Shown here: piece after piece, positions 39,794 to 41,347 of the stretch | Numbering within the stretch: the stretch's first letter is position 1 | Layout: the number at the start of each line of letters is the position of its first letter | DNA from: Mycobacterium seoulense | Lineage (GTDB): Bacteria; Actinomycetota; Actinomycetes; Mycobacteriales; Mycobacteriaceae | Assembly (NCBI RefSeq): GCF_010731595.1 | Contig: NZ_AP022582.1 | Span: 4,030,001 to 4,094,000, forward strand | DNA: 64,000 nt | Reading direction: 5' to 3' | Notes under the pieces: generated by a model | Seen by the model: only the letters and a program-made list of their open reading frames with translations | Told to the model about the DNA's origin: nothing | Databases searched by the model: none | Position numbers and translations under genes: made by a program

Positions 39794-39835
39794 GCAGCGC
39801 CTTCGCCTTCGACGGAGCCTTGCCGCCCCCCATCC

Positions 39836-39856
39836 GTAAGTCTATGCTTACCGTTC
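39836..39856 (+). promoter_or_regulatory. Promoter and dyad operator of the ArsR cassette
   Basis: GTAAG (39836-39840) and CTTAC (39847-39851) flank TCTATG. A -10 box, TATGCT (39843-39848), overlaps the dyad and lies 8 bases before GTG 39857, so the transcript is probably leaderless. An ArsR-type dimer bound here would block the promoter. Confidence 0.5.
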
Positions 39857-40180
39857 GTGGCCACTTACCAAAGCGGCGACGTGTGGCTGGCCCTGGCCGA
39901 CGGGACACGGCGGGCCATCGTGGAACGTCTCGCGCACGGCCCGTCGGCGGTCGGCGAATTGGCTCGCGGCCTGCCCGTCAGCAGGCCGGCAGTGTCCCAA
40001 CACCTCAAGGTGCTCAAGTCCGCGGGATTGGTGCGCGACCGCGTCGCGGGAACGCGTCGCGTCTACCAGCTCGACCCGGCGGGGTTGGCGGCATTGCGCG
40101 CCGATCTCGACCGGTTCTGGACGCAGGCGCTGGCCGGCTACGCCCAAAAGGTCGACGAGATCGAGGGAGAAAGCCTGTGA
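39857..40180 (+). CDS. ArsR-family transcriptional regulator
   Basis: 107 aa. The winged helix is LADGTRRAIVERLAHGPSAV followed by GELARGLPVSRPAVSQHLKV, LKSAGLVRDRVAGTRRVYQL. No Cys metal-sensing motif (CxC) is present, so it belongs to the non-metal ArsR group that usually precedes an SRPBCC/AHSA1 gene. The downstream gene overlaps by 4 bases (GTGA). It is expected to repress its own promoter and release on binding an unknown ligand. Confidence 0.88.
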   Translation: MATYQSGDVWLALADGTRRAIVERLAHGPSAVGELARGLPVSRPAVSQHLKVLKSAGLVRDRVAGTRRVYQLDPAGLAALRADLDRFWTQALAGYAQKVDEIEGESL

Positions 40181-40662
40181 CGCAACGCATTCCGAACATC
40201 GCGCACCACGTGTTCGTCAACGCCCCGATCGACCGGGCGTTCGCCGTCTTCACCGAGCGGTTCGGCGACTTCAAACCCCGGGAGCACAACCTGCTGGCCG
40301 TTCCGATCGCCGAGACGGTCTTCGAGCCCCGGGCCGGCGGGCACATCTACGACCGCGGCGTCGACGGCAGCGTGTGCCGCTGGGCGCGGATCCTGACCTA
40401 CGAGCCGCCCCACCGACTCGTGTTCAGCTGGGATATCGGCCCCACCTGGCAACTGGAACCCGACCAGTCGAAAACCAGCGAAGTCGAGGTGCGCTTCACC
40501 GCGGAGTCGGGCGAGCGCACCCGCGTCGACCTCGAACACCGCCATCTGGACCGCCACGGCCCCGGATGGGAATCCGTCGCCGACGGGGTCGACGGCGACG
40601 GAGGCTGGCCGCTGTATCTGGGTCGCTACACCCGCCTGCTGCCCGCCGGGCACCGGCAATGA
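40177..40662 (+). CDS. SRPBCC / AHSA1-domain protein
   Basis: 161 aa with the helix-grip fold of the START/AHSA1 family: HHVFVNAPIDRAFAVFTERF, then EPRAGGHIYDRGVDGSVCRW, ILTYEPPHRLVFSWDIGPTW, and a C-terminal helix after DGDGGWPLYLGRYTRL. These proteins bind hydrophobic ligands in a deep pocket. The ArsR-SRPBCC gene pair is common in Actinobacteria and suggests a small-molecule response. Its start overlaps the arsR stop (GTGA) and its stop overlaps the next start (ATGA). Confidence 0.85.
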   Translation: MTQRIPNIAHHVFVNAPIDRAFAVFTERFGDFKPREHNLLAVPIAETVFEPRAGGHIYDRGVDGSVCRWARILTYEPPHRLVFSWDIGPTWQLEPDQSKTSEVEVRFTAESGERTRVDLEHRHLDRHGPGWESVADGVDGDGGWPLYLGRYTRLLPAGHRQ

Positions 40663-41282
40663 CGGCCACCCTGATGAGCATGGCCCGCGACGAGCGGGCC
40701 GACCTGGCGGAATTTCTCGCGACGCTGACGCCGCAGCAGTGGGACGCGCCCAGCCTGTGCGCCGGGTGGACGGTCAAAGACGTTGTCGCGCATATGATCA
40801 GCTACGAAGAGCTGGGTGCGCTGGGGCTGCTCAAGCGTTTCGCGAAGGGCCGGGTGGTGCGGGCCAACCAGGTGGGCGTGGACGAGTTCGCGCACCTGAA
40901 TGCCCAACAGCTGCTCGACTTCCTTCGCGCTCATCTCCAACCGCGCGGGCTGACAGCGGGTTTCGGCGGAATGATCGCGCTCGTCGACGGAACCATCCAT
41001 CACCAGGACATCCGCCGCGCGCTGGGCCGACCGCGCACCGTCCCGGCCGACCGGCTCGAGCGGGTGCTCGGCTTGGTGCCCGGTAACCCCAGGATCGGCG
41101 CCGGACGCCGGATCAGGGGACTGCGCCTGCGCGCCACCGACGTCGACTGGGCCCACGGCACCGGACCGGAAGTCACCGGTCCCGGCGAGGCCCTCCTGAT
41201 GGCGATGGCCGGCCGGCCAACGGCGCTCGCCGACCTCGCCGGGCCGGGCCTGGACACCCTCGCCGCCCGGCTCGCCCACTGA
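40659..41282 (+). CDS. DinB-like / maleylpyruvate isomerase family protein
   Basis: 207 aa. TIGR03083-like blocks: DERADLAEFLATLTPQQWDA, SLCAGWTVKDVVAHMISYEE (metal His), and DGTIHHQDIRRALGRPRTVP (metal His pair), plus the extended C-terminal part RATDVDWAHGTGPEVTGPGE. This is the mycothiol-dependent isomerase/transferase fold. It is coupled to the SRPBCC gene by ATGA. It may conjugate or isomerise the ligand sensed by the ArsR regulator. The substrate is unknown. Confidence 0.82.
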   Translation: MTATLMSMARDERADLAEFLATLTPQQWDAPSLCAGWTVKDVVAHMISYEELGALGLLKRFAKGRVVRANQVGVDEFAHLNAQQLLDFLRAHLQPRGLTAGFGGMIALVDGTIHHQDIRRALGRPRTVPADRLERVLGLVPGNPRIGAGRRIRGLRLRATDVDWAHGTGPEVTGPGEALLMAMAGRPTALADLAGPGLDTLAARLAH

Positions 41283-41283
41283 C

Positions 41284-41301
41284 GCCGCGCCGCGGCGCGG
41301 C
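41284..41301. repeat. 18-bp perfect palindrome before embA
   Basis: GCCGCGCCG directly abuts its reverse complement CGGCGCGGC with no loop, immediately after the cassette stop. It could be a terminator stem or a binding site at the embA promoter. Confidence 0.6.
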
Positions 41302-41333
41302 CCCGCGTCCTCAGCGGAGAAAGCGGCTTCGCC

Positions 41334-41347
41334 TACCATCGAGCCTC
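41334..41347 (+). promoter_or_regulatory. embA promoter -10 box
   Basis: TACCAT (41334-41339), 8 bases before GTG 41348. The position fits a leaderless embAB transcript separate from embC. The gap between the cassette stop and embA is only 65 bases. Confidence 0.45.

What the first reader, a model, noticed from the sequence alone, without database searches (positions are those of the whole stretch)
39794..41347. Three-gene ArsR/SRPBCC/DinB cassette inserted between embC and embA
embC, embA and embB are adjacent in M. tuberculosis. Here a tightly overlapping trio (GTGA and ATGA joins) with its own dyad-overlapped, apparently leaderless promoter splits embC from embAB. The genes look like a small-molecule sensing and detoxifying unit. 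It could separate LAM arabinan synthesis (embC) from arabinogalactan arabinan synthesis (embAB), or link embAB transcription by read-through to an unknown ligand. I know of no described function for the trio in this position.
Basis: partly seen in the sequence, partly recalled or inferred. Interest (0 to 1): 0.7.

Follow-up and report, generated by a model that had tools for sequence, protein, structure and literature searches.

The report
Relocated Rv2034-type operon beside emb genes
A small self-regulated three-gene stress or detoxification operon, already known at another place in the tuberculosis bacterium, sits in this relative between two cell-wall genes whose own promoter is left intact, so it is probably a neighbour and not a switch.

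Summary
The trio is real, at the stated coordinates, and splits embC from embAB. It is not an unknown unit: gene order, overlaps and operator match the published M. tuberculosis operon Rv2034-Rv2035-Rv2036. Dyad and leaderless start are identical in 23 of 26 bases to the footprinted Rv2034 operator, so the ArsR is most likely an autorepressor. The middle protein is CalC/TxnO9-like, the third a mycothiol-dependent MDMPI-type enzyme. Of 147 Mycobacterium genomes with embA, 17 hold the complete trio in this interval and 9 hold remnants; 31 others carry a close copy elsewhere. The slot copies form one clade, which suggests one relocation. embA keeps its own -10 (TACCAT, 8 nt before GTG), the element needed for embA promoter activity in M. 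tuberculosis; the same layout stands before embA in 140 of 146 other genomes. In 18 of 40 named slot loci a reversed embR-like gene lies between trio and embA. A conserved link from trio to embAB is therefore unlikely, though no terminator was found in the 65-bp gap. By-product: the embC-embA junction looks like an insertion hot spot (300 bp or more in 71 of 140 genomes; aftA-embC, 2 of 122).

The parts
36527..39793 (+). embC, left neighbour
   Evidence: ORF; arabinosyltransferase models; C/A/B naming from order
39820..39825 (+). -35-like TTGCCG of the arsR promoter (17-nt spacer)
   Evidence: similar TTG hexamers at this place in many named loci, by eye; not flagged by the general scan
39834..39853 (+). 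Operator dyad CCGTAAGT-CTAT-GCTTACCG, 3 nt before the start codon
   Evidence: 23 of 26 bases identical to the published Rv2034 footprint core; same position in 41 of 41 named slot loci
39843..39848 (+). -10 TATGCT, 8 nt before GTG 39857 (leaderless)
39857..40180 (+). ArsR/SmtB-type regulator (Rv2034 type), no cysteine
40177..40662 (+). SRPBCC (AHSA1/START) protein (Rv2035 type), TxnO9/CalC-like
40659..41282 (+). MDMPI-type enzyme, TIGR03083 (Rv2036 type); invariant H45, D110, H114
41298..41347 (+). Conserved embA promoter block; -10 TACCAT 41334-41339, 8 nt before GTG
   Evidence: functional -10 in M. tuberculosis
41348..44674 (+). embA, right neighbour
44671..47898 (+). embB, overlaps embA

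Best explanation
The trio is the single-copy Rv2034-Rv2035-Rv2036-type operon of this species, relocated once, in an ancestor of the M. avium/simiae/scrofulaceum-like group, into the permissive interval between embC and embA. Mechanism: an ArsR dimer sits on the dyad that covers the spacer and -10 of a leaderless promoter and represses its own operon (shown for Rv2034; inferred here). A signal that is not a metal bound by cysteines (the protein has none) releases it (inferred). The SRPBCC protein binds or converts a hydrophobic, probably aromatic or lipid-like compound in its START cavity, and the MDMPI-type enzyme acts on it or its product with mycothiol and a metal held by H45/D110/H114 (inferred from family and conserved residues). 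embAB is transcribed from its own intact leaderless promoter and does not depend on the trio (inferred from sequence and from the M. tuberculosis experiment).
For: Operator, start codon and overlaps match the Rv2034 operon. None of the 18 genomes with a close SRPBCC in the slot has a second close copy. 42 slot trios (41 named plus window) form one clade, support 0.942 with three proteins, 0.535 with two (FastTree), nested inside mycobacterial trios at other sites and then actinobacterial pairs. At other sites the trio has different neighbours: ABC transporter, OsmC and cyanate lyase genes; EccE and a subtilase; a cytidylyltransferase-like gene and a histidine phosphatase. SRPBCC: TxnO9 E 5e-34, CalC 2e-16 by profile, TxnO9 first by fold. 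MDMPI fold: 2nsf E 1.1e-4. embA promoter layout in 140 of 146 genomes against 12 of 2800 shuffles; experiment in PMC2885622. Loss is tolerated: 9 of 147 genomes have only remnants in the slot.
Against: No RNA or protein data for this species. No terminator in the 65-bp gap, so read-through into embA is possible. PMC2885622 itself cites earlier work allowing a polycistronic embCAB message and EmbR binding upstream of embA. The two-protein tree supports slot monophyly weakly (0.535), and the named loci are the best 80 of 224. Fold match of the MDMPI is loose (TM 0.55, 14% identity). Ligand and both activities are unknown. Rv2034 is also reported to act on phoP and dosR and to bind many sites, so the regulator may do more than autorepression. 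Five genomes keep MDMPI in the slot without ArsR and SRPBCC, so the three need not act as one pathway. Orthology with Rv2034-Rv2036 rests on operator, gene order and descriptions in papers; the M. tuberculosis proteins were not aligned.
Confidence: 0.77

Rival explanations
1. Read-through coupling: when the ArsR lets go, transcripts from 39857 run through the terminator-less gap into embAB and raise arabinogalactan synthesis in response to the ligand.
For: Same strand, 65-bp gap, no T-run terminator found. Among 40 named slot loci with embA in view, 22 have no embR-like gene between trio and embA.
Against: Intact embA promoter of the same layout in genomes with and without inserts; its -10 is needed for activity in M. 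tuberculosis. 18 of 40 named slot loci have a reversed embR-like gene in between. Five genomes have lost arsR and SRPBCC from the slot while keeping MDMPI.
Confidence: 0.1
2. Toxin-antitoxin pair: the SRPBCC is a toxin and ArsR its antitoxin-repressor, and the third gene is a passenger.
For: COG3832-ArsR was listed as a candidate TA or TA-like mobile module (PMC2701414, passages) and Rv2035-Rv2034 as a predicted, untested pair (PMC3968373, passages); the title of a paper I could not read calls Rv2035 a type II toxin (seen in reference lists).
Against: PMC2701414 itself prefers a resistance function. In M. smegmatis the SRPBCC of an ArsR pair (Msmeg_6760) was not toxic and the ArsR did not act as antitoxin (PMC9416677, passages); that protein is a distant relative (17% identity to the window SRPBCC by fold alignment). 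68-87% identity of the SRPBCC in 22 aligned sequences from several actinobacterial genera looks like a conserved enzyme or binder.
Confidence: 0.08
3. Local co-function: the trio was recruited next to embA because its product protects or tunes arabinan or envelope synthesis, like the EmbR-like and kinase genes found in the same slot in relatives.
For: The slot also holds embR-like genes in 17 of 147 genomes and, in L074, a serine/threonine kinase gene that looks PknH-like by eye.
Against: The slot also takes PPE, P450, isoprenoid, glycogen, efflux and HNH genes with no plain link to arabinan (names by eye); in 31 of the 49 genomes with a close SRPBCC it is not next to embA (in one of these, G010, embA lies at a contig end, so this cannot be fully judged).
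Confidence: 0.08

Closest known systems
M. tuberculosis Rv2034-Rv2035-Rv2036 operon
   Same: Gene order, overlapping genes, ArsR autorepressor, operator and start codon nearly identical (PMC3338718 passages).
   Different: Location: between embC and embA here. The window operator has 3 differences in 26 bases and a less perfect right arm. The window ArsR has no cysteine, whereas the Rv2034 C61A mutant no longer formed dimers.
ArsR-COG3832 (AHSA1) mobile two-gene module of Makarova et al. 2009
   Same: ArsR without metal motif plus START-type partner; patchy spread; similar pairs on Rhodococcus plasmids (two looked at).
   Different: The mycobacterial form has a third, MDMPI-type gene; here chromosomal and single copy.
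CalC / TxnO9 START proteins
   Same: The only solved chains found by sequence; TxnO9 is also first by fold.
   Different: 37% and 29% identity by fold alignment; a biosynthetic cluster was not searched for.
Mycothiol-dependent maleylpyruvate isomerase (2nsf)
   Same: Best fold match and a conserved H..D..H set.
   Different: 14% identity, TM 0.55; D110 where I recall a glutamate; its pathway was not searched for.
M. avium embR-embAB
   Same: Another regulator gene inserted just upstream of embA.
   Different: The embR-like gene of relatives is reversed, and absent from this slot in the window; two paralogues lie elsewhere in the window genome. The M. avium arrangement is recalled; Belanger et al. 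1996 was seen only as a reference.

Membership tests
Rv2034-Rv2036-type operon | ArsR, SRPBCC, MDMPI-type genes in this order with overlaps | tested here: met
   overlap of Rv2034-Rv2036 stated; the MDMPI class of Rv2036 is recalled
Rv2034-Rv2036-type operon | CCGTAAGT-N4-ACTTACGG operator just before the start | tested here: met
   2 mismatches of 16 at 39834-39853
Rv2034-Rv2036-type operon | Protein-level orthology to the M. tuberculosis genes | not tested
   M. tuberculosis sequences were not fetched; that the transporter beside the trio in M. attenuatum fits Rv2037c-Rv2041c is recall
Cysteine-based metal-sensing ArsR/SmtB | Metal-binding cysteines | tested here: not met
   No cysteine in the protein despite the HTH_metalloreg model match
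MDMPI / DinB metalloenzyme | Fold and conserved metal-ligand set | tested here: met
   MDMPI_N over its cut-off; 2nsf best by fold; H45, D110, H114 invariant in 20 of 20 sequences; metal and mycothiol binding not testable
Type II toxin-antitoxin | Toxicity of the partner, neutralised by the regulator | not testable with these tools
   Literature on a distant M. smegmatis pair is against it
emb operon member | Transcribed with embAB | not testable with these tools
   embA own promoter intact; no terminator in the gap

The most novel reading that the evidence does not exclude
The embC-embA junction is a true integration hot spot of mycobacteria at which sensor and regulator modules (this trio, EmbR-like and kinase genes) are recruited just upstream of the conserved embA promoter and, through read-through or local supercoiling when induced, adjust arabinan synthesis to chemical stress.
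Probability: 0.1. Interest if true: 0.65.

Novelty: new member of a known kind. Interest (0 to 1): 0.33.

Why it matters
It turns an apparent mystery cassette into a relocated known operon with a testable repressor and operator, and shows that in many non-tuberculous mycobacteria the interval used in tuberculosis as the 'embC-embA intergenic region' is filled with other genes while the embA promoter itself is kept. Annotation and resistance tests that assume the M. tuberculosis layout would go astray there.

Tried and rejected
Metal-sensor reading of the ArsR: rejected for lack of cysteines. Anti-phage reading: PADLOC gave no match for SRPBCC and MDMPI and 13 matches of CRISPR-associated and other HTH regulator models for ArsR, best 56 bits, which I take as generic. 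Plasmid-borne trio: the distant DNA search found 19 plasmid records, ten of Rhodococcus with the ArsR-SRPBCC part at 71-72% identity, none covering 80% of the trio. Terminator between trio and embA: none by scan, and the GC-rich palindrome is not unusually stable (z -0.47). Genome-wide operator count as evidence: weak alone, because the reversed control pattern also hits many genomes; position was used instead. MDMPI relatives in the PDB by sequence: none clear; found by fold. Papers on an embC-embA insertion or on this trio there: none seen in the listings (held open-access library only; listings capped).

Rows dropped or left out: of the 80 named loci, A1-A3 use hand-picked subsets (22, 18 and 20 rows with the window). 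L107 and L116 were left out of A1 and L077 replaced by L078; L305 left out of A2; L077, L084 and L010 left out of A3. G126 had no embA match and is not among the 147. Gaps could not be measured in 6 of the 146 genomes other than the window's (contig ends, or embC not found within the stretch fetched). 'Else' loci that do not fit: 9 of 39 have no operator 3 nt before the start, and of the 30 that do, 10 have more than 3 mismatches.

Full report
What is there. The finding is accurate in its coordinates. Between embC (36527-39793) and embA (41348-44674) lie three overlapping genes on the same strand: arsR 39857-40180, an SRPBCC gene 40177-40662 and a third gene 40659-41282. The Emb proteins match the arabinosyltransferase models. 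Family models name an ArsR/SmtB-type regulator, an AHSA1 (START superfamily) protein and an MDMPI/TIGR03083 protein, of which 'DinB' is only the wider superfamily. The promoter reads TTGCCG, 17 nt, TATGCT, 8 nt, GTG, with a dyad at 39834-39853 over the spacer and -10; a general sigma-70 scan did not flag it. The nearest named protein in a search with the third gene product is from M. paraseoulense (97%).

What it is. The M. tuberculosis ArsR regulator Rv2034 was footprinted on CCGTAAGTCTAAACTTACGGTTCGTG, within about -30 to +8 of its start codon; it represses itself, and Rv2034-Rv2036 overlap and are co-expressed (PMC3338718, passages). The window has CCGTAAGTCTATGCTTACCGTTCGTG, 23 of 26 bases identical, up to and including the start codon. 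The operator lies exactly 3 nt before arsR in 41 of 41 named loci with the trio in the emb interval (38 of 41 with 3 or fewer mismatches of 16) and in 30 of 39 loci with the trio or pair elsewhere (20 of 39 with 3 or fewer); 9 of 39 do not fit. In the window genome it occurs once at 2 mismatches or fewer. In the genus sample 51 of 148 genomes have such a match; comparing the coordinates by eye, in 38 of these 51 one lies just before an SRPBCC match (four of these 38 beside a distant copy, 38-41% identity). The reversed control pattern also hits many genomes, so only position is evidence.

How widespread. A search of 148 genus genomes with the SRPBCC protein gave 69 genomes with a match. By my count 49 have a close copy (66% identity or more over most of the length, window included), 18 of them in the embC-embA interval and 31 not next to embA (G010 among the 31 has embA at a contig end and cannot be fully judged). 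embA was found in 147 of 148, and the DNA upstream of embA was fetched for the 146 other than the window, for some only as far as the contig goes. The complete trio lies in the interval in 17 of 147: the window, 15, and G059, whose locus is broken over two contigs. Nine more of the 147 hold remnants: MDMPI alone in five, SRPBCC alone in one, decayed pieces in three (G075, G089, G115; two of these are 3.3-Mb single-contig genomes, which suggests M. leprae-like species, an inference). So the trio in this place is a clade trait, neither unique nor general.

Origin. Of 80 named loci (the best 80 of 224), 41 hold the trio in the interval. Together with the window these 42 form one clade (FastTree support 0.942 with three proteins, 0.535 with two); in the two-protein tree its sisters are trios of M. 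attenuatum, persicum, ostraviense, simulans, angelicum and szulgai at other sites, then trios (and one pair) of Mycolicibacterium-type species, then pairs of other actinobacteria. At other sites the neighbours are an ABC transporter with OsmC and cyanate lyase genes (M. attenuatum); EccE and a subtilase (M. angelicum); or a cytidylyltransferase-like gene and a histidine phosphatase (G079). ArsR-SRPBCC DNA at 71-72% identity lies on ten Rhodococcus plasmid records (two looked at). One relocation into the interval, after a mycobacterial gain of the third gene, is the simplest reading.

Does it matter for embAB? In M. tuberculosis embA has its own promoter, independent of embC, and changing TACCAT to GACCAG abolishes it (PMC2885622, passages). 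The same paper cites earlier work that allowed a polycistronic embCAB message and reports of EmbR binding upstream of embA. The window has TACCAT 8 nt before the embA GTG. A TANNNT element 8 nt before an in-frame start was found for 140 of 146 other genomes (127 of these 140 in the form TA[A/C][C/G]AT), against 12 of 2800 shuffles; of the six misses four have TACCAT with 7 nt, one is a frame offset of mine and one a contig end. It is present in every genome with the trio or a remnant of it in the slot, and a longer block (CGGCCCCGCGTCC onward, 41298 in the window) is shared by trio and other genomes with embA over 72% identical. In 18 of 40 named slot loci with embA in view a reversed embR-like gene separates trio and embA. 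These facts make a conserved dependence of embAB on the trio unlikely. They do not exclude read-through in species like this one, where the gap is 65 bp and no terminator was found.

The interval as a hot spot. The embC-embA distance is 300 bp or more in 71 of 140 measurable genomes, window not counted. In the 122 genomes where both junctions were visible it is 56 of 122, against 2 of 122 for aftA-embC. Contents include embR-like genes (17 of 147), a kinase gene that looks PknH-like by eye (L074), small secreted proteins, PPE, P450 and isoprenoid genes, glycogen, efflux and HNH genes (29 genomes chosen; names by eye from the translations, not by model).

Likely function. The ArsR has no cysteine, so the signal is probably organic. 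The SRPBCC protein is nearest in sequence to TxnO9 and CalC, TxnO9 also by fold (model pLDDT 93.3). The third protein folds like mycothiol-dependent maleylpyruvate isomerase, though loosely (pLDDT 89.5; E 1.1e-4, TM 0.55), and keeps H45, D110 and H114 in 20 of 20 aligned sequences. An autorepressed unit that binds or converts a hydrophobic compound and then uses mycothiol is my best guess; the ligand is unknown. The toxin-antitoxin label is a prediction with contrary data from a distant M. smegmatis pair.

Verdict. Ordinary in kind, unusual in place. New here are the relocation, its single origin in this sample, and the hot-spot character of the junction; I saw none of these in the listings, which cover an open-access library only.

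Noticed in passing
window 39794-41347 and the same interval in loci L117-L304: The embC-embA junction is far more variable (4 bp to 9.5 kb in 140 genomes) than aftA-embC; it looks like a recurrent insertion site.
   Followed up: partly
L044:9109-10290 (-) and the slot of 17 sampled genomes: An embR-like subfamily: the 17 full-length matches at 71-96% to the L044 protein all lie in the slot, reversed to embA; one 71% fragment (G030) lies on another contig, and paralogues at 68% or less lie elsewhere, two (61-63%) in the window genome.
   Followed up: partly
L074:5569-7599: A serine/threonine kinase gene (PknH-like by eye) lies between embC and the trio, with an embR-like gene on the other side of the trio.
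   Followed up: no
L163 (G075), L166 (G115), L142 (G089): Decayed remains of the trio between embC and embA in small genomes (3.2-3.3 Mb).
   Followed up: partly
window 41298-41333: Conserved block CGGCCCCGCGTCC upstream of the embA -10 in genomes with similar embA, whatever lies upstream; perhaps a regulator site.
   Followed up: no
window 39851-39870: A second, weaker operator-like site (4 mismatches) overlaps the first codons of arsR; some genomes carry two neighbouring operator matches (G005, G013, G068, G109).
   Followed up: no
L118, L119, L121 (G062, G080, G001): Close relatives of the window keep only the MDMPI gene in the slot.
   Followed up: partly
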